DNA of 64,000 nucleotides from Tigriopus japonicus. Its lineage: Eukaryota; Arthropoda; Copepoda; Harpacticoida; Harpacticidae. This document shows, in pieces, positions 1 through 52,487 of this stretch. Location: positions 406,662 to 470,661 of the forward strand of contig JAAGOF010000252.1 in NCBI GenBank assembly GCA_010645155.1, read 5' to 3'. Made by a program: the position numbers and the translations under genes. The stretch's first letter is position 1. Every line of letters begins with the position of its first letter. The notes under the pieces are model-generated. The model had not been told where the DNA came from and did not search any database. It saw nothing but the letters and a program-made list of their open reading frames with translations.

Positions 1-579
1 GAGAAGAACGGCTATGGTGGCCGCGATGGTGAAAAAGGTGAAGATTATGAGGCAAAGGCGGTCCAGAACCATGGCTGCAAACTTCCAATCGTTCTCAATG
101 GCTGCCGTGTCCTCATCGTCGCGGATTTTGTCGGTGATCACACGCAGTTCTTTCAGAATTAGACTAAGTTCCCGATGAACTCCGGGCGGGAACGTGTTCA
201 GTGAGCTGCCGACTCCGCCTCCCACGGTCCCATTGCCGCCCACCATACCGTCGTCAGTGGATGTCGGTGGAAGCCCGGAGGTGACCCGCATGAAACCACC
301 CGACCCTGGCGTGGGTGTGTTTCCCATGGGCCCCATCGGCCCCGCCGGGTGAGTGTGTGAAGGATGGTGTGGGTGGATGTGGGAGTGGGGTAAAGTGGAG
401 GAGGGCCTGAAGTCGTCGTCCATGTCCAGAACGTTGGCCAGCAACGACTTGGATGAGCGCTCCTTCAGGTCCAGCTCCTTCATTTTGTTTTGCATCATGA
501 TGGTTTTGCGCGTGATCTTCTCTCCTGGCCGGCCCATCCGTAGCATCCAAGGGATCCATTGTAAGAACACGCATCTCAC
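1..579 (-). CDS. nAChRalpha6: nAChR exon 10: cytoplasmic loop and TM4 (cut at window edge)
   Basis: Starts after acceptor CACTTGCAG in phase 0 with [19 protein letters not shown], a conserved amphipathic helix. It then encodes the variable cytoplasmic loop, with a His/Pro-rich run ([14 protein letters not shown], 402-415) and a Gly-rich run (448-461). The conserved membrane-associated helix follows ([20 protein letters not shown]), then [17 protein letters not shown] and the rest of TM4. At position 1 the frame is still open after 193 codons, with TM4 nearly complete, so only the last few residues, the stop and the 3' UTR are missing. Confidence 0.97.
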   Translation of the reverse strand, partial: MRCVFLQWIPWMLRMGRPGEKITRKTIMMQNKMKELDLKERSSKSLLANVLDMDDDFRPSSTLPHSHIHPHHPSHTHPAGPMGPMGNTPTPGSGGFMRVTSGLPPTSTDDGMVGGNGTVGGGVGSSLNTFPPGVHRELSLILKELRVITDKIRDDEDTAAIENDWKFAAMVLDRLCLIIFTFFTIAATIAVLL

Positions 580-3500
580 CTGCAAGTGATAGGAGCGGGT
601 TGGGTTTGTTTGAGCTCCTAGCTTTCCCTTGGACCGGTTTACTCACCCAATTTGGCATTTCGTGGGTATCTGCCAGCCTGTGATGATAGTTCAGGATCAT
701 AATGGTTGTCACCACGGACGACGCAACCATAAACATGATGCAATTGAAGTAAGTACCTGCATCATATATGGGAAGAGTTAGCTTCGGATAATCGCCGTCA
801 TCCCTGTGCCAAAAATCAACAATGTCACCAAAAATCTCGGGTTCAGGTGATTGTTAGCACATTTGGATTAACCAAAAAGGAACTATGAACAAGCAATAAA
901 TGCAAGAGATCCAGAAAGTCGACACTTTGGGAAAAATAATCCTAAGTTGTTCGTCGGTAATTAAGCAAAGTGGGGATCTCTTGCACTCCTAACTACAGAC
1001 ACACATTTGTGACTGAACTTATCCTCGGGAGGCTAATCAATGTGCATCTTGATACAATTACAATCGAGGATAAGTGCAGATTGGGGAAAGCTTATGAGCC
1101 AAAATGCAAACCAAAAAAATGCAACTGAGAACATGAGCCAATGCCAAAAGAGGAGGATTTTAGAGCAGAATGAACTTTGAATGTCTGGAGAGATGCAAAG
1201 TTAATCATGACATCAAAAAAAAGTATTCCGTCAATAACTTTGAACCTTCAAACCAGAGCCTACGAATGAAAGAAATTTAGATTGAAATGTAGAATACGTA
1301 ATGAGAAAAAGTTAAAGATATTTTACGGACGCTTTTGCCGTGCCTCAGTTCTTCAACCGAGGCACTTTTCGTTTTAGATTGATCAATTTTAAAGAGTCCT
1401 TTTTGGCATTGTAATTATTTAAGAACAAGCAAGAACTGAAGAAGCTTTTAAAATGATTTTTAAAACGTTGTTAGCAGACTACAACCATTTGAACCTTGTT
1501 AGTGAGTGTGATCACTCAGTTTTTAGTCGGTTTAGGCAAGGTAAACCAGTGCAAGTTGAAGTTGGATTGAATTGAATTAGTACTAGTGGTCGTCTGATGT
1601 GAGGATTAGTTTTATGTGGAGTATTATCCTGTTTCTTTAGACAAATACCCCGAAAGCCCTATGAGCAAGGTTTTGCAAATTGTTCTTTTGAACACCAGTC
1701 GGAAAGAAAAAGCAGTAGTATGACAAGTTTCCGACACTATTTCGCATCTTTCTTATTTTGGTAATCAAATCGCAAGTTCTTGATATTGTAGGCATGTCAT
1801 GTTCTAAGAAACAGAGTTGGATGATGTTTAGGAAAGAAAATGACTGTGATTGTAGCCGATTTTTATGCTCATGCAGTGTCTTCTTTAATGTTGTAATGTG
1901 ATCGTTAATATTATTTTAGGGGCAATGTCCGTCTTCCTTTATCCAGACTTGACAGGAAATGCTTAACTTGTGCCTTCAAGCACATCTAAAAAGTTGGCTT
2001 TCCTTCAATATGCCGGTTAGTTATTTCTAAGCTTTAAAACTGCTTCAATTTAGACCAATAAAACTGAAACCCGTTAATTGTCCTCATGTGACAAACGCAT
2101 TAGCATCCTATTAATTAGAAATACCGTGTTGAGGTGTCTGTTACCACTCTCAATGGTTTTGATATCTTCACGGAAGGAAATCGTCTTCTTTTTTATGGAG
2201 ACACCGAATGTCTAGTTTTTAAGTGATCCTTTGGTTTGACGCTTTTTGTCTTAATGCCAGAACTCAAGGGGATGTCGATTTGTGATCTTAGTTCTGATGC
2301 CATGCAGGTAAAATGCACTTCTTGTCCCCAAATGATCTTTGTCGAATGTCTCGTTTTTCGTGAAAGTAATTTACAGGAGGCTTGTTATGAATGATTATTG
2401 TTCTGATTTAGAAACGATTGCCTGGGCCCCGGATTGGCTGGTAATTGTTTATCGACACCGATTTCTAAGAGAAGATTGAGTTGGTTTTATTTCCGAGTTT
2501 TATCTTTTGTTCTGGGGCAGGGGAATGATTTGAACACTATTAAGATGAAGAGAGAACTAGAAAAGAGTTCCATAAGAGTGGCGTGTCGAGTGGGACGAGC
2601 AAAATGCAAATCTCTCGATCGCGGTGAGGTCAGCGGGCTAACCTATTAAGGGCGTGGCATCGCTCACGGGTAGCATCTCCCCAACGATCGTTGCAAAAAT
2701 TGTTATTGAGAGCATTATAGCAACTCCTAGAATCAAGAAGAACATGACAAGAATTATCACAGTCACAACTCAGCAAACGTGGAAGCTGGATTCATTTTTC
2801 ATTAGGAGAGGGATTTTTGTTTTATTGTTTAGAATGTTTAGAAAAGTTGCTGCATATTTGCTTTAGTGTGGCCCCTTAAGCTTGTCTTCATGCGAGCTCT
2901 CTCTCTGTGGACAGGAAAAATGGCTGGTCTTAAAAACAACTCGGGGGGGCCCAAAGTTTGACCAAATTAGCCTTTCATCCAACTGTCCCAAATTTACCAC
3001 TCTTACGTTGACAATTTTTAGCTTGATTTCAGAGAGTTTGAGATGCTGTCCTACAGCAGATTTCATGTTGGAACTCTAATTTAGATGAATTGAAATAATT
3101 TCGTGACCACGTGGAGACGCAGTCAAACAACTATTACTCTAACCTATCAAGGGTGTGGCGTCAGAAACGGGCAGCATTTCTCCCACAATCGTGGCAAAAA
3201 TTGTAATGGAGAGCATTATTGTGACACCTGAAAAAAGAAGTCTTTACTGGTCTTTACAGGATCATTTTTAGAGAATCAAAGATCAAATGGGCAAGAGAAT
3301 GACTGCGGGACAGGGAAAAGCGACAATTAGGGCCTGCAGCGCGGATCAGTGATGCTGTCACACAAATTTAATTGCTCCATTTTAGGTTTCTTCTCAACAA
3401 GCCTTCCCTAGTGTATTAAGCCAGAGTGTAATTCAAATGCAGGATGTATGATTTTGATAAGCATGTTGGACAAAGTATTCTTCCTTCTGAAATCATTCAA

Positions 3501-6500
3501 AAGTCTGTTCTTTAAGTTTAGTTGCTTGGACTCATTTCTGTGTAATGCAATGTTTTTTTTGTAGTCGCTAAAACACCGATCAAAGAATGTGTCAGTTCGG
3601 CTCATCTTTTTTGGAGCCCAATTTGGTATGTTGTGTGCCGCTCCTGCCTTCATAAGAAAGTTGATTGAAATAAAAGCAAAGTTTGATGGATCATTCTATT
3701 AATCCCCTTAAAAAGCAAATCAGACTTGAGGAAGAGAAGGTAATGAACTAGTTTGCCAATAATTCCAACACTTGCACATAGCTGGACACTTAAGGCTGCC
3801 AAGGGACAAGTCAAGTGAGGTAAACTAGATGAAGTATTAGTCTTGACCTTTTTTAGATTAGGATGCTTGGATGAGAGAAAGGAATGTGTCACACAATCGA
3901 GGCTATTGAGCAAGGGCCAGTTGCATTACATTCTTAGCCAAGGTATTCGGATTGAAGGGTGACCTAACCTAAAACGGGCACAGCATCACTGACTTTCGGA
4001 AGCATCTCCGTGACCATGATACTAAACACTGTCAAGGACAGCAACACTGTCACCCCTGCAAAAAGAGCAAATGGCGGAGAATTTGAGAGATACAAACTGC
4101 GTGTTCCTTTTCTGGCCTTCATAACTCCCATCCTTAACATCAAGTTAGGCGCGGGCTTCTTTTATGAATGCAAGGATAATCTATAGACCTGACAATCATT
4201 CTGGAACAGGGGATTATGAAAAGAGAGGAGAAAATGCGTCTTGGGGTGGGATTGGCTCCCGATATCAGTACCTATGATTGGCACTTCACTTCAGAAGATA
4301 CCTCGGGTAGGGTCTCGAGAATAATCTTTTGAAATACAGCCAAAGATAAGAAAACAGTAACATCTGAAAGTATATATGACGATACTTCGATATCTTGGCT
4401 TGCCGACATACGTTTCGGAAGCAATGTCATTGTGAAATGGTTGTAGTGTGATGAACAAGGTGTATGTATGTGAAAGTGTAATTATTTACTGAACTTGTAG
4501 CATAAAATGTAATGTAGTCATGGGCGGTTGAGTGCAACTGTCAGGATTAGAACGGGTCTAATGCCAACAGGCACGACGACAAATAAAGCCCCTATTCTAC
4601 CAGGAGACTGTTCAAGGCTACTATAAATGTTTTTATTGTCTTGGTGGTAGTGCCTTGAACAAATAGATCAATGTCTTTTACCTAGCAAAGGGTTGTCTGA
4701 AGTCACTGGCATAGTCTCTGACACGGTATTTAGAAACACAGTCAAAGAGAGAAGAATTGTCACACCTGTTGGAAAACAAAGTTAAGTTCAGCATCAAGTT
4801 TCGCTCAGAACAACCTTTGGCAAAAAGGCGGTTGTTGGCTCTGGTCTGTTCCGTTTGTGCTCTAGCCTTGACTTCCCTGAAAATTACTTTCTTATGGATT
4901 CTTCTGAAATCGATAAGTGGAAAAACGATGCAAAATTACCAGATGAATTAACACTCTGTTCAACCTGGTAAAGTGTGGTGCAAAAGATGTATGGTGTTTT
5001 CACTCTAGCTCTAAGAAACACTTCAGCTATCCTAGAATAAGTGGAAAACTGTTCAGAGATGATAAACGCAAGAGAGCGAGAGACTAGGTGATGAAAGTAC
5101 GAAAATAATGCAAACTAAAGATAAAAATTGAGAACTAAGGGAAAAGGAGAGGTGGCTTTTTGGACTTGAGTCCTAGTGGGATGATACCAGTGGTGTGATG
5201 ATTCCTGACTTTAAGACTTGGTACTTGAAGAGACACTAGTATAATTTTTGTTGGAGCAATTTTATAACGTTGTGTATTGGAATTGGTTTCGTGGGTCCCA
5301 GGAAGTATAGGTAGTTTTCTTCAAATGGTTGCAGTTGTTGAAGCAATAGTACGAATTGTATAAATTTTATGGTAATAATCATAGAGGTGGTAATAGTAGT
5401 ATTGGTATTGGTTGTAGTTTTGGTAGTAGCAGTTGTTGTTGTAATAGGAGTAGTTGGTTTTGTAGTTTTAGTTATGCTGGTTGTTGTTGGTTGTAGAAGA
5501 ACATTGTAATAAGAAGCAAATGGAGCAAATAAACCACATTAGTTGCAAATGACAGAGATGGAGATGCTGCACATCATCAAGGTTGGCCACAAAGCTTTGT
5601 TATTACTCATTGTTATTATTGTTATTAGTCATATTACCTAGCAATGGGTTATCTGACGTGACTGGCATCGTGGCTGATACCATGTTCAAGAACACAGTAA
5701 GGCTGAGTAGTATTGTCACCCCTAAAAGACAACTCACTCACTTAAAAAAGGGTCACACAACGAAATGGATCAAAAGCCTAGTCCATTTAGAATCCTCTGC
5801 CTACAAAAGGCTCATTCAGAACGGTTTGGAGCTCTAATCAGCCTCAGAGAAAAGTCGGTCTAACTCAAAAAGGGGTGCTTCCTGGCCAATCCCACCCTCT
5901 GAAACTACAGCCTTTTTTGCTTTGTGTAGTTTTGATGAAACAATCAGCACAAGATGGGAGCAAAGGAGCATTGGGGTACACGTTGAATCTGGTTCAAACG
6001 GCCCTGTTCTTCATGAACACGAACAGCTATGGAGGTGTTTGTTTACATTGATTACACAGGCTCAGGGTTACCACTTTTTGAAATAGCTTAACCAGATTCA
6101 ACAGGAAGTTGATAATTTGTAGGATTGACGCAACATATGTAGTTGAGGGGCGATATGGATAGATAGAGAGTTCTATTGAAGAGTGGTTGGGACTGTTTCA
6201 CCTCTAAAGTAACAATGGTATTGAATATGAAAGGTTCCTAATGTTCTGGTGCCAATAAAGCCGTACTTGAAAAGTTGAAGACGCGTGTTTCATGAGAAAA
6301 TGCACTACAATAGATGTAATATACAAAAAATAAACAATGATACGCATGCTCTGAAAGTATGGAAGATTGAAATAAAGAAGAACTTGGAAACAAAATAAAA
6401 ATGCATCAAACGGATGCACAGTTTAAAGGGAAAAGTCCAAAAATATACTTTTCATGAGACTTGCTCTGGATATATTCAGAACTCAAACTGCAATGCCGTT

Positions 6501-9500
6501 TCTTTCATGCAAAAACAAAGTCTACAAGGAACGCTTGATTGATAGTGAAATTCCATCATTAAAAAAATGGATTTGAAGGAAAAAAGGTGTGTTGCATCTT
6601 GGCACATCAATGGTTTCTTTTGTGGTAAGAACAATGATGATGTTGATAATGACAATGATGATGATGTTGTAGTTGTTGAGAAAGATGAGAAATAAGAGTC
6701 AATCGTAATCCGTAAGAATACACTTTGGTTCACCTGATTTCATATTCCTTGCTTGCTTAGCTTCAAATGGTTGTTATGTCGCTACCACTAAACTAGCTAG
6801 AATTGTGTTCTCTCATTAAGTATAAGAATGCCAAGACCCTGATTTTGCCCTCTGACGTTCAGAAGCACAACTAGAGCTCTACTCTAGCTATGACACTGTA
6901 CTGAAGTTGCAAATTCAAGGTTGTGAAAATCTTATACTACTAGGAAATATAAAAGGACAGAATAAATTGCCGAGAGTGAAATGGAATATAAACAACACCT
7001 ATTTTGGATGGGCCATGGATATTTATGTATTTTACCTAACAAAGGAACCTGTAACGAAGTTATCGGCATTGCTTCACTGACATTTTGTTGGAAAACAGTA
7101 AGAGATAGGAGCACTGTGACACCTGAAATAGTGGGTAAGAAAACGTGGTTGGAATTAAGCAAGTGGGCCATGCAATTGGAGATGTTGTAGAAGTGTTAAT
7201 AGTCGCATTAATAGCAATAATGCGGGATTAATAAGCCCAACTATTTAACAACAGGATTCACTCGCCAAAAAGTTAGTATCAAAAGAAGTAAGCAATGGTG
7301 AGAGCTGTTACGTTTAGAGAGAGACAAGTCGTCGTAGTTGTGATGATATTGGCAATCTCCTGACTAATGCTAGCAATTTAGTTCTGATATGAAAACGATG
7401 ACAGAGACAGATTGAAGAGTTTTTCAAGGGATGAGAGTGCGAGGTTAGATTCTGAGGCGAATCGGAAAGCCCGACAAATGATTAGGATTGCCATCCTTTC
7501 AACGAGCAGGAACAATAGATTGTTGAACCTTTGGAACCGCAAACGAAAGAGACTTGATCATGTGAAATAACACAAAAATCACGCGTCAGCTGATTCTAGT
7601 TCAGTGTCTCCATTAGTTAAACGCTCTTTGGAAGGTATGTTTTTGTCGGACTCTCTTGGTTAATTCGTAATGGCAGTTCTCTAAAAGGGATGAGGATGAG
7701 TGCTTGTGTGACGACAACAATTACATTGTGCAGACTCAGAAGGAAAACCGAAAGGACGATAGCGGATGCCTCATTTAATGATAGGAATTACTTTGGATTA
7801 TTTAGAGGTAACCATCCACCGTGAACACACGAGAGACTAGATAACTCTAATTAAAAGAGTACCCGCATGAGATGGACTGATCCCACTAGGACACTTAGAA
7901 TCACTGTCTTCTAAGGTTTCAAGATGGAAAAGGAAAGCTGAAGAAAAACTGTGACAAAAGTAACTGTTACCGACTTTCAACAGAATTATTGGACTTGCCA
8001 TTTTGCAATGTTCTGGATAAGAGCAAGCCTTGTCTACAAGCATTGCGATTTTTCTTGGGCTTTCCTTTTTCTTCTTAAAACTTGTGAAGACACTGATTCT
8101 GAGAGGGGCCAATCAATGTCAGGCGCGTACTCTAGTAATTATAGTGCTCTGGGAGAGACAATGAGCGAAATAGTCATTTTTCTTGAGAGAGAAAGTGCGT
8201 GCTTTCTAAAAACATTTCAATGTTTGTAACCCAAACAAAGAGCTTGAAGATGGTCGATATTGGTGCAGGAGTTAATGTAGTTAACAACCAAACATTGAAT
8301 GTTTGAGACACATCTAAAAACGAGGATTTAGTACATAAGACTCTTAACTTGCCTAAGATATGAGAATACGATTTTGATGGAGCAATATATTTTGAAGTAT
8401 TTAATGAGAAGTTCAGCCTTTCAGGAGCCCCTTACGCGAAGGCTCGGGAAAGGCTCAAGACCCAAATGCATGTAACACAACAGCAAAGAAGGCGTGGTAA
8501 CATCAGAGAGGGGGACTTTAAACAAAAAATCATAAAAATGTTTTAGAGGTGAGGTGAGTTGTCATCCTGAATTTATTTAGGAGAGAGAGAGAGAGAGAGA
8601 GATGGAGACACAAAGATATGAGAGAGATGAAGTAAACTCTAGAAAAAAAGATAACGAACGACCACCCGACCGGCCCTCTTGTATCCCAGTGACAAGGCAA
8701 GAGAAGGTCAGCCCTTCAAAGAACCAGATCAAGGTCAAATGAAAATGTTCGCAGACGCAAGATGGCAAAAAGAATGGAAGAGGAACAAAGAAGGTCGAAA
8801 CCTGTCAAAAAGAACCAAGAAAAAATGGGCAGTTTTGTTAAGAGAAAAAGACGCATTCTTCAGATCGTTCAAATAATTTTAGCCCAAGCAAAAGAAAGAG
8901 TTTGGCCTTTTCTTGACGAAGAAATAACTGCAATGTTTTTTTTGGGATAAGTTGAAAGGGGAGAATACTAAAAAAATGATCGAAATACAAAAGTTTGTAA
9001 AAAAAGAGTGAGAGAAGGTCCATGGAACAAAGGAGAATCCATAAAGTTTATATGTCAAGTAGAGGGGACAAAGAAAGGCTGGAGTTTCCTGAATTAAAGC
9101 TAATCTGTGTACATTAGGAAACCTTCGAACTTGGTGTTCACTTGGTCATCTGATTCTAATTAGACGTCATAGGCTTTAATTTAATATACACCCAGGCACC
9201 ATTTGAGCAGCGAGGAAATCGCTATGCAGAAGTATAAGAGTTTATGGTTTTAGAGAAGAACCTAGGACTAATTTAGCGGGAACAGGTTGTATGGAGCACA
9301 TAACAGTACGTCAAGGCTGCACGACGCCCAGATGGTGAGTTGTGTGTACTCTATTACAAGAATAAAGAATAATTTGATTTAATGGAGCACATTTCTGAAA
9401 CAGACCAACCCATTTGGGAGTCTGGCCTCAAAAATATGGGATTAAGGAAGTGGACAATGCCATGCACGCTCTTACCTAGTGACAATTTTTCTCCCGAATC

Positions 9501-12500
9501 CGGAGGGAGTGTGAAACCTAGCACAGCCATGGAGGCTATGAGAACGCAGGGCACGATGAGGTTGAAGAAATAGTAGAGTGTTCGACGACGGATTTTGATT
9601 GTGAAGGTCACATCCAGATAAGGCTCTGGACAACAGTCGTAGAAGACCTCATTCCGCTGCCCGGGAACACCTAAATGGCAAATCAAGGTTTAGAGACTTG
9701 TCAAGGCAAGAGAGCTTCTTCCACTGCGGCCATCGTCGGAACTTTGCAAATTGAATAACTAAACCTGTGATGAAACTGGTTTAGACGGTGCAAATATTTT
9801 ATCAAGTTCCCGAGGAGATCGCAGTGGAAGAATAAAGATCACTGTTTGAACTGACTGCGTAGTAATTACATTATGTTTTGTGTATTGTTTGATGATTTAC
9901 AGGATAAAGGATTGAAATACAAGATGCAAACGTTATTATCAAACCATGCTCTGACCACCATTTGAAAGATATGATGGTCAATGAACGCTCATGCATCTAT
10001 GGTTTTATAAGAAAAAATCGACAATGAAAGAAACAATTACTGTCAATAATTGTGATTTAAAGTGTAGGAAACTTAAATTGAACAACGTTTGTTTGGGATG
10101 CAGACAGGAAAGGTAAGATGAGCAAGATCAATATTGTTTTGGAAAGCGTTTTAATTTCAGTTTAGAAGGCAATGGTTTTATTGGACAAAATTTGGATGAT
10201 CTTGAAGCAAAAGTAGAGAAAATGGCAATCAAGGCGTACCTTTTAGCTGTTAATCAAAATTGCTGTCCTTTGAGTTTTCACTTAAAGCATTCGTCACCTT
10301 TTATATCATGGACGCTGAGACTAAAAGTAACGATTTTCCACTGGTGCTACAAGAAGTCAGCAACTCTCTAATCTTAGTTATTATGGTGATGCTGGTTGTG
10401 ATGTTATTTTCGGCTCTGGTTAGACTAGAGTACTACAGCAAGAGATACGACGATCATCTACCCATGATGAAAACAAGTGTTGGAAAACCTTTGATTCCAA
10501 CAATTGGGAACAAAAATGGTTTAATATCTCCACTTCGATATCGCCGGTTTTTGGAAGTAGTTTAAAGAAGCAAAAAAAAAGATACAGGAAAGGGAGAAGT
10601 GAGAAAGACAGGAAAATAAAAGCCTACCAAGAAGAGAGAAGGGTTCTAGCAAAAGTAAGATTTTTAAGACATTAGTTGGTAATTGTTTTCCGGAAATCTT
10701 GATGAAAACAATGAGATAGGTTTGATGAAGGACAATTTTCATTCATTTTAATGGAACCGCAACCAAAGCTCTTTTTATAAGACAAAGAAGGGGCGAAAAT
10801 GTTTCGCTATATAATTGGGGATAATGATGAAAATGATAACAGATTTGGGTTGTTAATGAAAGAGAACACGCATGTCTACAAAGAAACGGAGGAAGAAATG
10901 AAGAATAGCAATAAAAAATTCGGGGTTTCTTAGTTTGAAACTGGGAAAAAGGACATTTTAGGAAAAAAACAAAGAACAACAGTTTAAGCCGTGGAAACGT
11001 TTGTTTAGCTATCATTAAGAGGATTTTGGTTATTACAGAATGCCGACAGAAGAGGAAGTGTTCGAACTCAATCCCAATTTTAACGTTGGTGGTAAAGATA
11101 GTTAAGTAATAAGTACGTGAGCAATGAGTGGTACAATAGTATTAGAAGAAGTAGTTGTTGTAAGAGCAGTAGTATTAATAGTAATAATAATACTGGTACG
11201 TGGAACAGTAATATCAAGTAGTAGTAGTAGTAGTAGTAATAGCAGCAGCAGTAATAGGAGGTTCAGTGGTAATATTTTGCAAAGTATTGTGATCAACAAT
11301 CAATTACCTAATAGATGCCACTCGCCGTTTTCGACATAGGTACTAACGTCGCCTTGACCTTCGTCGTTATTCATTACTAATTCCAACTGCAAAGATCAAC
11401 TTTAGATCAGTAATGACATCTCCGAGGTTGCAACGGCTCAGCCCAACAACACTAGTAGCATCATGACTCTTTGGCAGGATTTGTGGGTTCTTTCTGACTG
11501 CTGTCCCTTTCCCTTTAAACCATAGAGGACGTTGGTGTCCTATCATGTCATCACCATGATTAATAACTTCAATTCATCAATCATTTTGACATCAAGCTTA
11601 AATTGGGCATCTGTTTCCCGTGGCGGCGCCGTTTGTTTTAGAAATTTCAGGGTGGCTAAATTATGCAAATCTACAAAGCTTCGGTTTGAACGAAAACTGG
11701 TTGGAAATTTGGAACCCATAGAAAATAAATAGGACTAGATGGGATGGCATTCAACCACTTCGGGAGTCTTGTGGTTTCTTCTTTCTGTTAGTCGAATTTT
11801 TGATGCGTCTACAATAACATGATATCACCGATTGCCATTCCTTAACTGAATTACCTGATTGCTTATCTTACACAGTATTCGTTTGAATGTATATTTAACT
11901 AATGGAACGTAAATAGAATGCATCGTAAAACGTACTGATATTTGCTCCGGTAAAGAGCGAATGAGTTTTAGTGTGTTTTCGATAATTTAAAACTTTGATA
12001 AAAAAGGAAAAGTGATAATCGGTCTACTTTTCAGCAAGTTTCAAGAATGGTTCATGATGCCAAAAAGTGAATACAAGCAAAATATAATAAATACATTTGG
12101 AGGAATGGCTAGAAATGAAGGCCTGGTTGAAGTTGTAGTTCGAGTAGCAACACTTGTTTTGGTGACTGTGAAAAATAGTTTGGTTGTCGTTGTAGTAATC
12201 GTGATAAATAGTATAAAAAGTAGCAGTAGGAGCAGTTTTTGTAGTTGTAATATAAGATAAGTATCAAATGAGTGAATAAGTTCTAAAAGTAAGCATGATT
12301 GGAGTCAAACTGATAAATGCAATAAATAGCGATGGTTGTAGATATCATACTAGTGAGAATACGTGGTAAAGAGAAAACTTGAAAAAAGACAAAACGAGAT
12401 CAATCAAAGAGACGATGGAAAGAGAGCACTCATTATGTCTGATTGTTAAGACTCTTTGTACTGTTTGCAGTAGTATTTTAGAGGCATTGATTTAATTGGA

Positions 12501-15500
12501 GTAGTAGTAGAAGTAAACGTGGCAATAAAAGAGATATATCTGTAAAATGTTCAGTTTTTGAAAGCTAATCTGATCCGCAACTGGAAATCAAAACAGAACC
12601 AAAACAAAGCAAGTCTCCTCATTTCAGATCTATGGTACTCCTACGAACACCGGCACAAATCGACCATCGCCAATTGGCACGCCAAAGAACATGCATGGTC
12701 TCTATTGAAACAAATCGTGTTTTACGATCATAGGGAAACATAGTTTTGTTTTTCATACATGTTTTATGGAGTCTTCAGTACCTTACAACGGGTAAAATCC
12801 ACTGTGATATCAATTACCATCGTCTATTTTTTTACGATGGTTCGTCGACCAACGTACTAAAATTGGCAGGAAAATACTTCTAGGTTGAAACCCGATAATT
12901 TGAACTTCTTGGGAAATGGAATTTGCAAAAATAGTCAATTTGTTGGCCTAGCGTCTTCAAACAAGCGTCATCAATTTAGCCACTAACGCCATCTATCGCT
13001 AGAACAGATGTTTTGGATATGCAAATATGACGATATGATGACGATGATAAATGTACATATTATAAAAAACCAATGGCATTGCTTTGATGAATTCAAGAAA
13101 ATTTTGTCAAAAAAAGGAGTGGTAAAATTAACCCGTGTACAGAAAAAAATACCATTTATGCACATGTACAGGACGGCAGTAATGACCAAAATTCGGCGGA
13201 GGGAGTTTCATTTTATTGGCGACGAGGGGGGTCAATTAAAATGAAACGAGTGATGTCGGATCTTGGCCATTACTCCCTTCATTTCAGGGTGCATATGGTG
13301 TTCTGTTGACCAACTTATCCTTCTTGGGACTTCTGTTTCAAATTTTCAACCCCGAAAATCAGTTCAACCATGGATATTCGTACTATCCAACTAGCATGAT
13401 TTGCCTACTTAGTACCGGTTTTAGGAGCTAGCTCTGTTCACCTCAAACCACTCCACCATCAGTTCGTGTGTTAGTTACTCAGTGCCATTGTATAAAAGTC
13501 AACCACGACGTCCACACTGAATCATACCCCGTCATTGAGTTGGGGGCTTCAGACGTACAAATTATTGTACATATGAGATGTACTTTTAACAAAATAGTTG
13601 AGATGTAGAGCAATGAATTGAATTGTAGGGCAATAAAGTGATTTGTAGGGCAATAAAGTAAATTGTAGGTAAATAATCTTTTGAACTTAACCTCCTTGGG
13701 CTTGGAGGAAGTCTCATAAGGGGAGATGGTTGTAGCGCAGTTGGTTAACGCGCGACTGAGTTACGCTCAGGTTCCTGGTTTTGATCCCAGGTTTCATTTT
13801 GAGTTTCAGTATCATTCATATTGAGAGTCTCATTTTTACATTTCAGTTCGCTCAATATCGTTGAGAATGTCATTTGCACTCCTGTTCCTTTATCAAAGGT
13901 TTCCCACATTTTACAAATGCAATGGTGGATTTAAATGAGACTTGGACTATAATAGTGTATATAAAGACTAGTGCACTATAATAGAAAGAGTCACAATCAT
14001 GGACAGCGCCATCTAGTATATTCTTTGTAGTTTGGCTCGCCAATTACATAACGGTCAATCCAAGCTTAGTTTGAAAATGTTTGGTCTGAGCTCTGATTGG
14101 TCCATATAAAATCGACAAACCCATCTATGGAGAACAAACTAATGGGGTGCTATTCTTGGCCATGTTTATTTTTTGTTTGGAGTCGTCACTTGTAGATTAG
14201 GTCAATCAGCTACAAAAAGCCGAGTTGATTGGAAACCAATCCAAAACTCACCAAAAACGATGCAAAGAGGCTCAACTTTGCTATCCCATTATATTTCTTG
14301 CCTTTTGTGATTGTTAAAGAAGAGTAATATTGAAATAATTGTCCAAAATTAGAAGATTTACGAAATATTTTGGCCTTTGGTAAGCCAAGAAGCACTGAAT
14401 TTCTGGAGTGGGAGGCTAGCTCTGTGAATTATGGTTACTAGTAAGATTAATTCGATTGCGTTTTTACAAACGAGACCTGGCTTGTATTCAGTAGATTACG
14501 CATTTCAATTTTCAGCTCAATCAAATGATGGAGTAAAAAGTTAGGCCTTCTCAAACTTATGGACCAAAGAGAGCATAGAATGAATGAACCTTTTGTGGTG
14601 AAGCAATTACCAGAAAAGGGCTAATTCATTCATTCTCAGTAGGATTTGCACTGAACTTTGAGTGAGCATAACTTTTGACTCAGACCATTGTCTCAGATGA
14701 AGACTCAGTTCCATTGAGCTGAAAATTGAAATGCGAAATAAAATTGATGTGATTGATTGATGATTAATTGATGCGAATTGAAATGCTAACATAGGCAAGG
14801 TCTCATTTGCAGAAGAACGTAATTGAACTGTTTCTAATGGAAATCATGATTCCTCTCGTTAGCCTCTCAGTCCAGAGAAATTCAGTAGTTCTTGGGTAAA
14901 CAAAGTCCCAGTTAAAAAGTTGCGAGATTTCTCAAAATATAAACAATCTTTACGAGCGCCCCATTGACATTGCTCAAGACTGTACTATTTCATCAAAGTG
15001 CTCTAGACTGGACGTTCTGCTTTTCACCCTTTTTTGTTGCCAAAAGTCGGTCTGACTTGTGTTCAATTAATTGCTTTGTGCCGGTGTTCTCCTAAGTACG
15101 AACAATCATGGTAACAGATTACAGACTGACTACTTTTGGTATCAATCAACAACGAATCTGTTCTTTGACGAAACGTCTCAATGGTGTTCTAGTTTCATGA
15201 TGATGATGATGAGATGATGATGATAATGATGATGCATTCGTGTTATGTACATTTTGTGGAATAGAAGCTTTGAGCTGATCATCGGGTCAAGAGAACGCGA
15301 CGACCTACCTAGAAGTGCCCACTCGCCATTCAGAACATAGGTAGAGGTGTCGCCTTCTTCCCCATTTAGCTGAAGATCCAACTAGAATGAACAGATGGTC
15401 ATTCAATTTGGTCTAGACCTCGCGTAGATTTTGCAAATGTTTTATTATTAAAAAAGAAAGAAATAATGATGTGGAGCCGTGGTCATAAAGATACTGTGTG

Positions 15501-18500
15501 GTCATAGCTAGGAGCAATTGCGAGCTATTGAGCATTTGCCTTGGTGTTGGGCCAGTTGCAACGTTATTAAAAGATAAATATGGTAATTCCCGACTGAACG
15601 TTGGTCCGAACTTGTCCAATGTCCATTCATGGTAACTCCATTAAGGAAAGAAAAAAGTAGCTTTTGCGATAGTTTCTTACCACAATGGAGTTAAACATGA
15701 AGGACACAGAGAAGCGAGCAACCATCAATTGGGATCTGAAGAACCAATCATGCTTTGCTTACCTTGAAACCGTTATAAGTCCAACTGCCGAACTTCATTT
15801 CGCAGTCTTGGTCGTCAAACGGGAACCACGTGATATCTATCTTGCAAGTGGATTTGAAAATACCCGGGGGAATGTAAGTACAGCTACCGTTGCTATTCAC
15901 CACCACATTGGTTTGGTAGGTGCCATCAAAAGCCTCATCAGCGCTAAATACAACAATGTGTGAGAAGTGTCAGTTCACTTTGTCATCAGAGGCTCAGATG
16001 GCGACTCGGCCATTCCATTTGAGAAGCAAGGGTTCCACAATCAAGAATGGACCACCACCATAACGTGATGGTCCAATCGAGAGAGTGGAGTCATTCAAAT
16101 AGACTGGATGGATAAACCGCATCCGTTAGCCATAATCACAATTCCCCTAATTGAGTAGTAGCTGAAATAATGAAGGACAAACGACGACGATACCTGTTGT
16201 ACATGAGGACATCTGGCTTCCACAATTTTTGGGGTGGCATTCGAATGTCCTCTATGTTGCCATATTCCGATTTGTTCCACACCATGTTGACATCTTTCCA
16301 ATCCTGTGAAATGGAATTTCGTTTGAAAAGATAGTGTTGAGCTGTCAACCTTTACCAATGGTACTATTCGTGCCAAGTAGTAAAAGCCAAGCACACACAT
16401 GCCTTTTGCCAAGCTAAGAGGAAACATTGGGAACTCACCTTCAACGAGGTTGGACAATATGGATAATAATTCTAACTAGTGTTCAAACTTTCGAGATGTT
16501 AGTGGGATGCAATCATGCGCTTTTACGACAGATCAGAAGAGTCATGCTGTTCTTGGAACACTCAGTGTTGAACCTCAATGGGTGCCCAAAGAGCAAAAGA
16601 TAATCGGAGTGTTCCAATGGTAGAGTTAAAAAGATGTTTTGAGTTGATGTGTCTGTGAGTTGTTTTTTGGAAGGAGTGAGTGCCTTGAATAATTCCAATG
16701 GACAATTTAGGACAACTTTCACAGTTATTTTCGTGACTTTGGATAGACATTGAACAATGAAAGATGGAGAGGCTGTCGACGGCATTTAGAGTTCAGTACT
16801 AACGCCCAGTTGATTGGAAATTTACGAGAATACTACTTGGTCTCTTAGTATAAGAAGGATTAATTTATTGAGAGGGTTGGTTGTCAAAAATTTAACAGAG
16901 GTGGAGAAAAGTGAAGAAACAGATGAGTGGATAGATATCGATGAAGATGATGCGCAAGGTTTGTGATGGCACTTAAGAGGTTTTAGTGTTGATTGGCACA
17001 TTCCTGGATGATGGATGTCGAAGGGGCACAAATCCCAAACAAGAGGTGATCTCATTTACAATCCCACATTGTCTTCTTTTACTTTTGGCCAAACCGGAAT
17101 TTATCATAGAAGTCAAAAAGGGATTGCCCCACAAAAATGTAAGACTACCTTATTTCTGTTATTGAAGAAGGAAGGAAAGTGAAATGGAAAATAGGAGGGT
17201 AAAAGAGGGACTAGTTGTGGTCTAATCACCATCAAAACGTAAACCTGGTTGACTTCTCAATGGATGTTTTCAATGATCAGTTTTAAGTTTTTCTTTGTCC
17301 CGTTGGTAAGTCAATCTTGTACGTAAGTTCGTTACTGTTTATGTTCTAGACGTCCTTGTTGGTGTCCCATTCATGTCTTTGTTTATAAATGTGAGACCAA
17401 ATAGTCACTTTACATTTGGTCGGTTCATGAGGTTGCGCGTGTTCGAAAATGTTCTTTCCGATAAGATCCCAAACGCTATGAACTAAAAGATCACACTGAA
17501 GGATAATACAATGGGATTGTTGATAAATAATACGACTTGCTGAACTCGTTTCATCCATTCAGGAGTCCACCACGTACTCGTTTAATTAGGAGCAATGTAA
17601 ACATATGAATTAGCTTTACGACTTCTGGTTACTACTACTTGGTTAGTTAGTTCAAGGTGTAAAGAAGTTAGTCGCAAATGATACACAACTAGAAGGTTTA
17701 GAAGGAAGGAGACTGTTGACATTGCTGAGGGCAAAAGAGTACAGTGTTGTCAATGAAAGATAGACAATAACTTTGAAATTGAAATGAAGGCTTAAAAATA
17801 AGAATAGTAATGAAAGATGAAGAGAGAAAGGATGGATTGATCGATGGAAGTAGGAAGAAGAAGAAGAAGAGGTAGAAGGCGAGAGCTTAACTCTGTTGGC
17901 GTTTCTCTCTCTACTGTACTGATTATTTGCTGCCCCTGGGACGACAACACACTTACCAGATTTAACCATATGTTTGTCGTAAGGAGCTGATTTTTTTCAT
18001 CCTATAGACAAAATAAAACAATGCAGGAGCGGAAAAGTGCAACCAAAATCACTTCAAGTACACTGAGCCTTCGATTTATTGGGTTACTTCTCGAAAATGA
18101 GGTAGTAATAGGTGTTTTTCATCCCCCAACAATTAAATCTAGTTGGACAAGCAGCTGTTTTAGCACACCAAACAGGGTTAAAGATGGAGCGACAAGGAGA
18201 TAGAGAGTGGGTGTTTTAGGATGAGATTATGATTGATCTCAATTTCCAGGTTGATTGGTGATTTAGACCATCGAGAAGCGTGACTTAAATTAGACAATGA
18301 CATTCGTTGGTTTAGCGAAACACCTCTTCTAGAAGTAGTAGTATTTTGACGGAACGGGGATGAGGAAGTTAAAGGTGTCCAAAAATGTCATTGGATTTGA
18401 ATAATTTCTTTTGTCAGTGGAATGTTTCTTTCAATCTGTTTTTTTTCTAACTTGGAGATGCGGTTTTTAAGTCAGACGCACACACGAAAAGTAGCTTTTT

Positions 18501-21500
18501 AGAATCCATAAAACCACCAAAGAAACTTGTCTCTCTTCCAGAAGTAGTTAAGGTTTGAAAATGATAGTAATAGCTGTTGTAATAGTAATGATGATAATAA
18601 TAATAGTAGTAGCAACAGTAGTAGTAGTAGTAGTTAGATGATATCCATGCACATTGAAAGTGTGGTCGGAGATATAAAGAGATGATAGTTGTAGTAATAG
18701 CAGTAGTAGTGGGAGTTGTAGTAGTAGTAATAGTAGTAGTAGTAGCAGTAGTAGTAGTAGTCGTATTAGTATATAGTAAATATATGATGGACTATTAAGC
18801 AAGCATGACAGGCGTGCCATTCACCATCCAAGAGCACAACAACAGAAGGAGCAGCTTCGTTCAGAGTATCGAAAGGCCTTTAGGCCCAAGGGAATAAGGC
18901 TCGTCCTCTTCCTCCTCCAGGCCTAATAGCAAGACACTAGACCTGACAGAAGAATAGACCCACCAAGACCCACGTGACATGAACCAACAAAGGCCTTCAC
19001 ACACCCACTGCAAGTGTCCACGTGTGTCCAGATGGTGAATCATCATATTCCCTCGGCCTTTTTTACAAAGCAAAGGCTGAGATTCCAAACTCGTTGCGAA
19101 CTTCTGCTTGGTAGTGCAATGTTGAAGAAGAGGCCAAGGGGCGTGGCACCACTTACCAAATTTAGCCAAATATTTGTGGTAAGGATCTGATTTTTTTCGT
19201 CCTATAAATGGGGAATTCAGGGGCTGTACTTCGAGAAAATGGTAAAATTGGTCTTTTGTCAATTTTTTATAGTTCATTACAAGACAAAACATGAATATGC
19301 TGAAAAATCGCTTATTTTCAAAGCAAAATAAAAACCAACCTCCTGTGGAGGTACTTTTCTTTAGCAATGAAAGAAAGTGAAGGACGTCACTTTCTTGTGA
19401 GTCTTGAAAACGCATTTTCCCCAGAAGTATTTCGAAAACTTTGCCCGGCTTCAAAGTTTAGAATGGAAAAATAATGTCTGCCTCGACTTTCTCTCTCGAC
19501 TCGTGACGAGGAGAACAAAATACCACTTGACAAGCAGCCGGGATCCAACACGAGGTTCAAAAGAGCAACTCTCATATTTCCCTGACAGATCAATCAAAAT
19601 TTAGATCCCGTTTTTCTTTCGCCGCCAACTCTCGGTCCTATTACACAGAAATAGAAAACCCGTTCGTTCGTTTTGGGGAAACTTGGCTACACTACTCTCT
19701 GCCTACTCCATCCAAGGTTATGATGGCCATCGCCGAGCACTCCCGTGGAAATTGGAATCTTGACATTCCTTCAAGATTTTGAAGTGTTCCGTCCTCGCCA
19801 GCTAGCTAATCCTGGGATGGTAGTTCTCATTTTGCCATTTCCTCCAATTGTGCTGTGTTCCCAAAGTGGAACAAGAGCACTTCTGAGTGGCCCTATGAGG
19901 AAATGCAAATGATCGCCATTGCATCCGCCCTTTGAGTAAACTACCAAGGATAAGCAGTAAGTTCTGTTTGTTCACGGTTGACGCCGTGGACGAAAAGTGA
20001 CATGAACTTCTTGGGTTCTCTCTAGGGAACAAAAGGAACCAGGTGACAATGTCAAAAAGGCGCCAACTTCCTCCTACTCCTCCTTCTGAGTTCTCTTCAG
20101 TTCTCCTCTTGATACGACGAGTTTTGTTCCGAGGGGGTCTCATGAATAAATTAGTGGGTGGGAGCGTTAGCTCACTTCAAGATCATCCTTATCACGGTCT
20201 TGTTGGGGAGTTGAAACAAAGGCTGGAACTAGAAACATTCGCGAGTTTCAAGTTTTACAACTCACTTTCCAAAAGACAAAGGCAGCCTTAGAATCGATAA
20301 AGAGATTCTCATCCCCCCAAAAAAGGGAACAAGAGGGGGGGAGAAGCGGAAATGGTTCCAATCGTTAGGAATGACGACAAAGGCCGAGTTCTCGCCAATG
20401 ATAACGCGTCAGATTTGAGCGTGGCCTTTTTGTTGAAGATTGAGAGGAATGGCTCTTTTCCCAATTTTCGACGTGATAACTTCTGCAGTATCTTTTTTTT
20501 TTAATCAAAAACATCATTGAGCTATCTCGAATCTTAAACTTACCACATCAATGATTTGCTGAAGCGTCAGCCCAAAGGCCAATTTAAGGGCTTCCGACTC
20601 GTTGTAAACAGGTCGCTCCAGATTGTTGTACTTCTCCAACAGGTCATTGATGAGTCGTCGCTCATTCGGACCACTTCGGACGCCTAAAAGTGAAGGAGAA
20701 GAAGTTCAGAAGAAATGGACGACAGTGGTCTTAATGTGTGAAACGACTAGGTTGTAACAATTCTGTAAGTGGCAACCTTTAAGACGAATGTGTTTCGGTG
20801 GCTTGTTTTGACGTCACTTTCATTGGTGAGTGGTGTACTTACTGAGTCATTACCTGGAGACATTCATGAAAGAAAATGATGACGTGGGTTACTTTTCTCC
20901 CACAAAAATATGAACCATTTGAACGCAAGGATACAATATTGACCTTAGCTGTGGCCAATAATTCTGAGAGCAGAGAGCTGAAAGAACCTTAAAAAGATTG
21001 CTTTCTACCATATTGGTATTGCTTTTGAATAATTTGAGAATGTGAATTGAGAGACATGGTATTCGCTTCAAATGAGGTGCTCTTACAAACTCAGTTTTCA
21101 TGCAAAGGTACTTTTATTTACATTTCTCAAACTTTTGCCAAAAAATCTAACCCATCAAAGAAGGCAATGAATGTTACATCAACAGATTTTGTGGAACATA
21201 TTCTAGGATCCAATGCGTTCCATATTCTTTGTATCCGTTTGTTCATTCGTTCATTCCTTCATTCGTTCGCTTCCAGCGTTCTCAGCCGCAATTGGAGGCA
21301 AACAAAAGTGATTGATGGTGGGAATTCGGAGGGAATATTTTTCGAAGAATTCGATATTCCATTTACTCTGGCAGGAACATTGGGATCATTCAATGCCAGG
21401 GTTCCCCATTGGAATAACCAAATAAGTGTGCCCAGACATGTTCTCCAATAAGTCATGGTCTGATTCATGAGCTAAGCAAATACATCCCCTAGGCTAAAAG

Positions 21501-49850: not shown

Positions 49851-52487
49851 CTTGGAAGCCGATGTTGAGCCTTGGCTGGATGACCAGACTCCGACTGGAA
49901 CGAGGGCCCTCCCGGCCCAAGTTGATCGGGTCATTGTGTCCACATTCAAGCCAGGGGATTACGTCTCACGGAGGACCTCGGTCTTTGCGTCCCTCCGGGA
50001 CAAATATCACTGAACTATTAGGTTATGGTGGAGCTAGAGTGGCAAACTTGGTCATTATCACTGACAACACAGTTTGAGGTTCCTATGATTCACAAAGTAA
50101 TCAAAGGAAGAGGCGTCGGAGGAGTAGGAGTAGGAGGAACGGAAGGATGAGGACGAGGAATTGAAGGAATAGGAGGAGGAAAAAGAGAAGGTGGTTCCAC
50201 CTTTGGACCGGGTAGGGTCCGAAATGCCTCTGGGTTCCAAGTGAGCCAGAATCATCAAGTTCGACGTGCTCACCATATAAACATCCAATGAGGAGAAAAC
50301 AGGCAAAACTAGCACTCCCTAAAAAAGTGGACTTCTCTATGGCCTGTTTCCCGACAACATTGCGTTCAAAAGTGGTTGCACAAAAATGGACCAGAGGAGT
50401 AAGCGGAAGATGTGGAGCAAGGGATCATCTGGCACTTCCCGCTTCCTCTTATTTTTCCCACAGACTGTTCAAGAAAATCCTCTTCACCTCTCCCGAAAAG
50501 ATGTTGGCCGTTGGCCGCGTACAATTCGTTCCCCCGTTCGTTTCTTTGGCTCCTTCCTCAGTGTCTCACCGGCGCTCCCAACCTCGAGGAACGAAACGGA
50601 GGATGGAGGCCAACACACGATCGAAAAGAGTGAGAGTCGAGAGGGACAAACCTCTCTGGCCCTGCAAACAAGAAGAAGAAGAAGAAAAGACCACCGATCG
50701 ACCACCATCCCTGTTCCCAAGTACTACAGCGCCCCACCAGCAGTATGCCACTTTACAACTACTCAACCTTCACCGGCCTGGCCAAGCTTCCAAAGTTTCC
50801 CCGAGCTTCTTCTCCTTTTGGGCTTGTCCGCCCTTTTCGAATCTGCACGTCTGTCCTTAAGGATTAGGAGAGGATGAGGCTGCCAGACCCAAAGTTCCAC
50901 AATTGGGGGGAGAGAAAAGGAAAGAGAGAATGGGCGACGACCCAACGGGGGCACCCAATGGCTTGCCCATGCTCGAAATCAGCAACGGTGCCTTACCATC
51001 CTTCTTTCATCCTCCTTCCCGAGTCCACAAACGTCGTGATGGTGGTGGTGGTGCATTGCATCACTAGATTGGTACTGAGACTCTCGTCCTTGGCTCCTTT
51101 TAAAGGGCGTAAACTTCTGCTAGACCTACACACTGGCACACGACACCGGCATCTTTTCACTGCAGATGAGGCTTTGCTCAAAAAGATGTTGTCTCAGGGT
51201 TGCCACACAAGCCTGTTGAAACAAAGTCAATGCTCGATACCATACCTTTTGGCATACACTGTTGCAATCTAGCAACCTCGAGCTCAACCAGATCAAGCCC
51301 ACTATTTGGACCCAAAGCATGACCCACAGTTCTTAGAACCCTGAATTCCACCAGGGAATCGAGCAAAATGGAACCTTCGGCTCAAAGGGGAAAAGCAGGT
51401 TCGGCGTAGACATCATCCACTGCTTCTACTACTTCTGGTACTACTACCCCTACTTGTAGTACTTGTAGTACTATCTTAAACTAGAACGTAGCTCTCTGGC
51501 CTTTAGAGTTACAGCCAGTCTCTGAGTCTCTTTGGTCCCAATGAGACTCAAATGATGAGCGAAACGGACACCACCCAACACAGATAGGGTAAATTTGAGA
51601 TACATGGTGGAAAAAGATGGCCTCCAAGGAGCAAAATGGAGATTGCATTATTCTGTTTTAGCCATCGGATGCACGTGGCGTCTTCGGGGGAAGCTCATTC
51701 AGTCAATGTGGCGGAACTAAGAGGGCTTTGGGCGCCAAACGAGCGATTGATGGAAATCCATTGAAATCCAATTCCCCCCTCTCTTCTCTTGGTTGCCTTC
51801 AGCGAGCATTCCATTGCAGTTCCATGCCAAAACCGTCGACGTCATATGGTAGATCATTGGAGTGGTCCACGATCAATGAACGATATGCTTGGGCAAAATG
51901 GATTTGAAACCAATAAAAGTTTATCAAGAGTCGGGAATAGATTAGTCCTTCTCACGAGGAAATTTTGTCAATGCAAGTCGCATTGCGACAGAAATCAAAG
52001 AGGTTCTTTTTACGTTCATGCCGGTTTTATCTGCATGTGTCGTGTTGCTTTGTTTGTCTCAGGAAATGGATTCATTTGCGTGAATGGGAAGACTTGTTAT
52101 CAGGAGGCCGCAAAATTTCAACCTTTGCCTTATTACTCAAGAACTCTTGGAGGAAAAAAGAGCTTGCTAGAATGAAAGATGGATGATAACAAGACAAGTC
52201 AAGTCGAGACGCATTCCAGACCTCTGATACTCGAGATCAGGAGAAACCTTGGTGCGAGTGTAGAAACTAGTGAGATTAAATCTTCACATTGATGAAAGGG
52301 CTTGATCATTTATCTAAACAAGAACTGTACACAACAACCGTATGATTGTGTTCAAACACGATGATGTATTTGGCTTTGGTCATTCTAGCAAACATTTGAA
52401 ATTGAAATAAAGGAAGAGAAGCCCTGAGATTGCGAGTGTGTACAACAAACTCAGTCCTTCAACGAAGATAACAGAATAACAACAAGT
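49851..52487. other. Head-to-head intergenic region between nAChR exon 1 and the EF-hand gene
   Basis: 2.6 kb that should hold both 5' UTRs and promoters. It is more GC-rich than its surroundings around 50.3-51.2 kb and has a purine-only-like G/A tract at about 50103-50191. Overlapping plus-strand open frames of 190 and 163 codons (50288-50877) lack recognisable domains and are probably chance. An initiator-like TCAGT lies at 52451-52455, 33 bp before the EF-hand ATG. Confidence 0.5.

What the first reader, a model, noticed from the sequence alone, without database searches (positions are those of the whole stretch)
2643..7122. Six tandem, interchangeable TM2 (pore) exons in one nicotinic receptor gene
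Six exons, all phase 1 to 1 and 84 or 87 bp, each encode TM2 and the TM2-TM3 linker and can each join exon 7 (9476) to exon 9 (756) in frame. Insect Dalpha6 genes are known for three such copies; six would let one gene make six different ion pores. All copies are stop-free with usable splice sites, so this looks like an active cassette and not a graveyard of duplicates.
Basis: partly seen in the sequence, partly recalled or inferred. Interest (0 to 1): 0.92.

Follow-up and report, generated by a model that had tools for sequence, protein, structure and literature searches.

The report
Copepod receptor's six-exon pore cassette
One neurotransmitter-receptor gene of a small crustacean carries six interchangeable versions of the exon that builds most of the ion pore, an old and conserved set, and three of the versions end in a splice signal that would read as a stop codon if it were not used.

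Summary
Six intact exons (84 or 87 bp, phase 1 to 1) encode TM2 from position 4' plus the TM2-TM3 linker; each joins exon 7 (ends 9476) to exon 9 (starts 756) in frame. The gene is not a Dalpha6 orthologue: it falls in a copepod clade grouping with insect alpha7, while a separate alpha6-like gene in the same genome has the usual three copies. Exon 3 and loop-F exon 6 are duplicated too. The copies are old and constrained: f and g differ at 16 of 22 synonymous sites yet share 27 of 28 residues. Thirteen isoforms of a near-identical relative use a, b, c or e singly (11) or skip exon 8 (2). Units identical to b, c, f and g occur in other copepods; a has a clear match, e a weak one. All 59 environmental proteins counted carry exactly one TM2, but two copepod gene models carry two in tandem, so exclusivity is likely, not proven. 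New here: e, f and g, alone of 26 donors compared, read GGT|TAG. Left unspliced they stop translation at once, and one copepod protein with g ends exactly there.

The parts
7036..7122 (-). TM2 exon copy a (87 bp), [30 protein letters not shown]
   Evidence: Splice sites and frame; used in 4 of 13 isoforms of a near relative
5638..5721 (-). TM2 exon copy b (84 bp), [29 protein letters not shown]; Ala at 20'
   Evidence: 3 of 13 isoforms; identical unit in Lepeophtheirus salmonis P0017
4682..4765 (-). TM2 exon copy c (84 bp), [29 protein letters not shown]
   Evidence: 3 of 13 isoforms; identical unit in P0015
4272..4363 (-).
3969..4055 (-). TM2 exon copy e (87 bp), [30 protein letters not shown]; donor GTTAG reads GGT TAG if unspliced
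   Evidence: 1 of 13 isoforms
3144..3227 (-). TM2 exon copy f (84 bp), [29 protein letters not shown], Thr at 6'; donor GTTAG reads GGT TAG if unspliced
   Evidence: identical unit in L. salmonis P0017; 0 of 13 isoforms
2643..2726 (-). TM2 exon copy g (84 bp), [29 protein letters not shown], Ala at 6'; donor GTTAG reads GGT TAG if unspliced
   Evidence: identical unit in P0151, which ends at that Gly; 0 of 13 isoforms
9476..9670 (-). Constant exon 7: end of ligand domain, TM1, and -1' to 3' of TM2
647..756 (-). Constant exon 9: TM3
1..579 (-). Exon 10: TM3-TM4 loop and TM4; its stop codon lies about 27 bases outside the window in L009
11308..11386 (-). Exon 6b (loop F alternative)
   Evidence: used in 7 of 13 isoforms
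15309..15381 (-). Exon 6a (loop F alternative)
   Evidence: used in 6 of 13 isoforms
15763..15943 (-). Exon 5 (Cys-loop)
16194..16303 (-). Exon 4
17957..18001 (-). Exon 3b ([15 protein letters not shown])
   Evidence: used in 6 of 13 isoforms
19157..19201 (-). Exon 3a ([15 protein letters not shown])
   Evidence: used in 6 of 13 isoforms
20544..20683 (-). Exon 2
49776..49934 (-). Exon 1 (signal peptide region), 49 of 53 residues identical to P0001

Best explanation
This is an alpha7-type nicotinic acetylcholine receptor subunit gene of a copepod with a cassette of six live alternative exons for TM2 and the TM2-TM3 linker, plus one dead or poison copy. The pre-mRNA normally joins exon 7 to one of the six and then to exon 9; some transcripts skip them all. 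Constant exon 7 supplies the -1' to 3' part of the pore (cation filter). The chosen exon 8 supplies 4' to 20' and the linker, so it resets the outer pore and the gating link while the filter and the 9' Leu stay fixed. Shown: the exons, frames and constraint; a, b, c and e in annotated isoforms of a near relative; identical b, c, f and g units in proteins of other copepods. Inferred: that one unit is normally used per mRNA, how the choice is made, and what each pore does.
For: Six intact exons with matching phase and splice sites. Strong purifying selection between copies: f/g dN 0.05, dS 2.6; b/c dN 0.11, dS 2.0. Units identical to b, c, f and g in other copepod proteins and a clear match to a. 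Near-relative isoforms use a (4), b (3), c (3), e (1) or none (2) of 13. 59 of 59 environmental proteins have exactly one unit. The alpha7-type placement is seen in two trees.
Against: No RNA from this species. No f or g among the 13 isoforms. e has only a weak match beyond the near relative (P0021, 21 of 29, and nearer to a C4 unit). Two copepod models carry two units in tandem and three models carry none. Phases do not enforce exclusion, and no RNA pairing that could was found. How far the 13 isoforms rest on RNA is not known to me.
Confidence: 0.85

Rival explanations
1. Splice-or-stop: copies e, f and g are hybrid exons. If their GTTAG donor is used they make full-length subunits; if not, the same bases read GGT TAG and end the protein right after the TM2-TM3 linker, giving a ligand domain + TM1 + TM2 fragment (decoy or dominant negative). 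This adds to the cassette model and does not replace it.
For: Immediate in-frame TAG in e, f and g, not in a, b, c. T at +3 in 3 of 3 against 0 of 23 other donors of the two array genes, kept although synonymous sites of f and g are saturated. P0151, 32 member sequences, ends at exactly this Gly after a g unit identical to the window's. An AATAAA lies 152 bases past g.
Against: 16 of 17 environmental f/g-class proteins run on into TM3. The three donors may share the sequence by descent. P0151 could be a partly spliced RNA or a cut contig; I could not see its DNA. None of the 13 near-relative isoforms ends there.
Confidence: 0.3
2. Only some copies matter in this species: a, b, c and e are used, while f and g (like d) are rarely or never spliced here although their frames are open.
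For: 0 of 13 isoforms of the near relative use f or g; weak donors; d is already broken.
Against: f/g dN 0.05 against dS 2.6; units identical to f and g in other copepod proteins; 17 of 59 environmental proteins are of f/g class.
Confidence: 0.15
3. Tandem inclusion is real and functional: some mRNAs carry two TM2 units in a row.
For: P0017 (b then f), P0036, insect gene models, and P0097, which UniRef names D. melanogaster Dalpha6 variant type V, with two units. The phases allow it.
Against: 0 of 13 near-relative isoforms and 0 of 59 environmental proteins have two. A second TM2 would reverse the topology of TM3 and TM4 (inference). Gene predictors tend to chain in-frame exons (recalled).
Confidence: 0.08

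Closest known systems
Insect nAChR alpha6 (Dalpha6) exons 3a/3b and 8a/8b/8c (PMC1919356, PMC2064938)
   Same: Tandem TM2 exons at the same place between the TM1 and TM3 exons; duplicated exon 3; alternative use
   Different: Other gene by phylogeny (alpha7 clade); six live copies instead of two or three; exon 6 also duplicated; GTTAG donors in three copies
TM2 arrays in insect alpha7-type gene models (Timema P0119 and P0123, Ephemera danica P0127; termites and crickets with two)
   Same: Same alpha7 clade or protein type and same exon; up to four units including one 28-residue unit
   Different: Fewer units in what I saw; no f/g class; known to me only as protein models, no paper found in the ten searches
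Copepod alpha7 gene models (Lepeophtheirus salmonis P0017 and P0020, Eurytemora carolleeae P0021 and P0036)
   Same: Same clade and same unit classes; b and f identical in P0017
   Different: Array DNA not seen; tandem units and a skip in the listed cluster representatives
Dscam1-type mutually exclusive exon clusters
   Same: Array of interchangeable exons and several variable sites per gene (here 2 x 2 x 6 = 24 combinations)
   Different: Far fewer copies; no docking-selector pairing detected

Membership tests
nAChR alpha subunit | PF02931 and PF02932 domains, Cys-loop, vicinal Cys pair, GEK before TM2 | tested here: met
   PF02931 E 5e-73, PF02932 E 4.9e-51; Cys-loop [23 protein letters not shown] and GEK in the translation
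Arthropod nAChR alpha7 clade | Groups with insect alpha7 to the exclusion of alpha6 | tested here: met
   Copepod clade 100/100; with insect alpha7 96/90 and 89/83
Dalpha6 orthologue | Groups with Dalpha6 and other insect alpha6 | tested here: not met
   alpha6 rows form another clade; the C4 gene is the alpha6-like one, with a weakly placed branch (92/84, 84/43)
Dalpha6-type exon make-up | Two exon 3, one exon 6, two or three exon 8 | tested here: not met
   Two exon 3 (met), but two exon 6 and six live exon 8
Mutually exclusive exon cluster | Tandem homologous exons, same phase, interchangeable | tested here: met
   Six exons, phase 1 to 1
Mutually exclusive exon cluster | Exactly one included per mRNA | tested here: inconclusive
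   One unit in 11 of 13 isoforms and 59 of 59 environmental proteins; none in P0012, P0013, P0020; two in P0017, P0036
Mutually exclusive exon cluster | Competing RNA pairing (docking and selector sites) | tested here: inconclusive
   Best pairing within the range of 8 shuffles in three layouts at step 12; one species only, and not every such cluster needs it
Mutually exclusive exon cluster | Regulated choice by cell or stage | not testable with these tools
   No RNA data

The most novel reading that the evidence does not exclude
Three of the six pore exons (e, f, g) carry a built-in switch: the bases GTTAG after the final G are a splice donor when used and a stop codon when not. A single donor choice then decides between a channel subunit with a special pore and a truncated ligand-binding fragment ending after TM2, and this is kept across copepods.
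Probability: 0.3. Interest if true: 0.78.

Novelty: new variant of a known kind. Interest (0 to 1): 0.6.

Why it matters
TM2 lines the pore. A six-way cassette would let one gene tune outer-pore residues and gating without touching ligand binding, and the f/g pair (Thr or Ala at 6', otherwise nearly the same) is a natural test of one pore position kept apart over a long time. The same gene also varies exon 3 and loop F, giving 24 combinations. Nicotinic receptors are pesticide targets, so knowing that alpha7-type genes of copepods carry such arrays matters for reading receptor pharmacology in sea lice and in non-target plankton. The stop-in-donor pattern, if functional, would be an unusual way to couple splicing to truncation.

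Tried and rejected
Dalpha6 orthology: rejected by trees. Graveyard of duplicates: rejected by dN/dS and identical units in other species, except for copy d. Chance TM2-like frames: rejected. RNA docking-selector pairing: no signal against shuffles; the finer scan at step 6 had stronger single values (down to -20.5) but was not compared with shuffles at that step. More copies of exon 3 or 6 in the window or the C4 gene: none found. More TM2 arrays in the genome: among the 19 places scored six are this array, three the C4 array and ten are single places elsewhere. Rfam at gathering scores: no match. A first regular expression for TM2 units was too narrow and was replaced; the second still missed P0135 and P0146, whose single units show. 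The dN/dS rows for copy d were one base out of frame and are not used.

Print: ten paper searches were answered. I read passages of PMC1919356 (also its outline and section 13), PMC2064938, PMC7419010, PMC8505678, PMC7017565, PMC3644170 and PMC5111602; PMC7221154 was searched for four terms and held none; all other papers were seen as search listings only. There I saw no report of more than three TM2 exons in an nAChR gene and none of a copepod TM2 array. Most subscription papers are not in the library, so this does not show absence from print.

Not done: no structure prediction or fold search; no RNA from the species; DNA of other copepods was out of reach (metagenome scans capped at 0).
Full report
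What is there. On the minus strand of the window lies a nicotinic acetylcholine receptor (nAChR) alpha-subunit gene. Exon 1 is at 49934-49776, exons 2 to 10 run from 20683 to the low end of the window, and the stop codon lies about 27 bases outside, in locus L009. Joining exon 2, 3b, 4, 5, 6a, 7, 8c, 9 and 10 gives one open frame of 513 residues with PF02931 (E 5e-73) and PF02932 (E 4.9e-51). The best matches among solved structures are alpha7 receptors.

The array. Between exon 7 (ends 9476) and exon 9 (starts 756) there are six intact TM2 exons: a 7122-7036, b 5721-5638, c 4765-4682, e 4055-3969, f 3227-3144, g 2726-2643. The gaps between them are 417 to 1314 bases. All are phase 1 to 1, so any one, any several, or none keeps the frame. 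Between c and e sits a seventh unit, d, with an acceptor and a TM2-like frame that ends in TAG; none of its four GTA/GTG donors keeps the frame. It may be a relic or a poison exon; I could not tell which.

More than chance. The profile from the six copies gives them 63-67 bits and d 25.8, while the best other hit in the window has 7.0 (circular for the six). PF02932 finds e on its own, below the family's cut-off. A genome search with a blended TM2 peptide scored 19 places: six here, three on contig C4 and ten single places elsewhere. So among the places scored, tandem TM2 arrays exist at two loci of this 195 Mb genome.

Age and constraint. f and g share 27 of 28 residues but differ at 16 of 22 synonymous sites (dN 0.05, dS 2.6); b and c share 26 of 28 with dN 0.11, dS 2.0. 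These are old duplicates under strong purifying selection. In proteins from other copepods, units identical to b and f occur in Lepeophtheirus salmonis P0017, to c in P0015 and to g in P0151; a matches P0014 at 24 of 29. e is the weakest: outside the near relative its best copepod counterpart, Eurytemora P0021, matches e at 21 of 29 and the third C4 unit at 23 of 29. The Thr/Ala difference at 6' between f and g is also seen in other species (Thr in P0017 and P0059; Ala in P0151 and P0079). Among the 303 proteins, units that match f or g best came only from L. salmonis and from unlabelled environmental rows. Of the unlabelled rows, P0059 and P0076 and P0151 were placed in trees and fall in the copepod clade; the others were not placed.

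Use. The protein search returned 13 isoforms of a near-identical gene from another assembly, source hidden; P0001 differs from the window at 4 of 513 residues from exon 2 on and at 4 of 53 in exon 1. They use a in 4, b in 3, c in 3, e in 1 and no exon 8 in 2; none has f, g or two units. Exons 3a and 3b and exons 6a and 6b are both used, and P0011 lacks exon 3. I do not know how far these isoforms rest on RNA. Taking every row labelled jgi, merc, lgn or ena (59 rows), all 59 carry exactly one TM2 unit: best class a 21, b 1, c 16, f 15, g 2, and 4 alpha6-type; e has none. Four lgn rows listed only are outside this count and show one each. These rows are cluster representatives at 90% identity. 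Where a contig length is given it runs from 1.35 to 7.7 kb, mostly 1.5 to 3.5 kb; long uninterrupted frames on such contigs, for a gene that here spans some 50 kb, are most simply read as cDNA (inference). Against strict exclusion: 37 of the 303 proteins have two or more TM2 units (in two of them, P0016 and P0303, the second is far away), among them the copepod models P0017 (b then f) and P0036, insect models, and P0097, which UniRef names D. melanogaster Dalpha6 variant type V. Skipping of exon 8 is also seen in L. salmonis P0020.

Which gene. In two trees built with the TM2 part removed (31 and 34 rows), the window gene sits in a copepod clade (100/100) that groups with insect alpha7 subunits (96/90, 89/83); the second tree includes rows named alpha7 from Apis, Periplaneta and Leptinotarsa, with Drosophila Dalpha5 inside the group. 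Dalpha6 and other alpha6 rows form another clade. A second gene on G000:C4 with two exon 3 copies, one exon 6 and three exon 8 copies lies outside the alpha7 clade near copepod row P0068; its exact place is weakly supported (84/43), but its exon make-up is alpha6-like.

What varies. By the usual TM2 numbering (recalled convention), constant exon 7 supplies Glu -1' and Ser 2'. Exon 8 supplies 4' on. All six keep Leu 9'. They differ at 6' (Thr; Ala in g), 13' (Val; Ile in f and g), 15'-17', 19', 20' (Glu; Ala in b) and in the linker, which is one residue shorter in b, c, f and g (alignment). For Tribolium alpha6, exon 8c is said to replace a conserved TM2 Glu and so perhaps to affect conductance (PMC2064938, passages). 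Hence the cassette should tune the outer pore and the gating link, not the cation filter. This is inference; no physiology was available.

A new detail. The donors of e, f and g are GTTAG. With the phase-1 G this reads GGT TAG if not spliced, an immediate stop after the linker Gly; a, b and c read on for 33, 10 and 3 residues. A T at +3 occurs in 3 of 3 of these donors and in 0 of 23 other donors of the two array genes (Fisher p 0.0004, but the three may share it by descent). All six TM2 donors of the window match the donor consensus at 6 of 9 positions, the constant and exon 3 and 6 donors of the window at 6 to 8, and those of the C4 gene at 5 to 8. P0151, a JGI protein with 32 member sequences, runs through exon 7 into a g unit identical to the window's and ends at exactly that Gly, which fits a stop at the same codon in another copepod. 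But 16 of 17 environmental f/g-class proteins continue into TM3, so such donors are used. Proteins shorter than 0.55 of the query length were not candidates, so other truncated forms may have been missed. I hold splice-or-stop as a serious but unproven addition (0.3).

Mechanism of choice. Phase, length and intron size give no hard exclusion. A search for one docking site pairing with the flank of every copy gave energies inside the range of 8 shuffles in each of three layouts (step 12); a one-species scan is weak evidence against it. How the choice is made stays open.

What is known. Insect alpha6 has two exon 3 and three exon 8 versions in most species examined, and two exon 8 in Anopheles and Bombyx (PMC1919356, outline, passages and section 13). 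In Tribolium alpha6 all six combinations were detected (PMC2064938, passages). A fly review lists no splicing for Dalpha7 and only a rare loop-F cassette exon in Dalpha5 (PMC8505678, passages). L. salmonis alpha7 was cloned, and with alpha1 or alpha2 plus both beta subunits gave no current; the word exon does not occur in that paper's main text (PMC7419010, passages). An exon-8-skipped bovine alpha7 is cited as inhibiting the full-length form (PMC5111602, passages), a precedent for the skip isoforms. Insect gene models of alpha7 type already show four units (P0119, P0123, P0127). So the kind is known; six live copies in an alpha7-type gene is the most I saw; and the f/g class and the stop-in-donor pattern are parts that I found nowhere in the ten paper searches.

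Source. Size and the copepod placement suggest a harpacticoid such as Tigriopus, but that name is recalled and untested.

Noticed in passing
15309-15381 and 11308-11386: The loop-F exon 6 is also duplicated; both versions are used in isoforms of a near relative (6a in 6, 6b in 7 of 13), and P0014 and P0015 show a 6a-like and a 6b-like version. The fly review read lists no such pair.
   Followed up: partly
19157-19201 and 17957-18001: Exon 3 is duplicated as in insect alpha6, although this is an alpha7-type gene; the C4 paralogue has two as well, so the duplication may predate the alpha6/alpha7 split.
   Followed up: partly
L011 and L012 (G000:C4:3876000-3895000): Alpha6-like paralogue with three TM2 exons, two of them starting with Asp.
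   Followed up: partly
proteins P0119, P0123, P0127, P0031, P0034: Insect alpha7-type gene models with two to four TM2 units, some with a second TM1 exon as well, suggest an old pancrustacean array.
   Followed up: no
4272-4363: Degenerate copy d starts with Asp like two of the C4 units and one insect unit, and its frame ends in TAG just before a GT; poison exon or relic.
   Followed up: partly
about 47140-47420: A run of unread bases (X in all frames) inside the long first intron.
   Followed up: no
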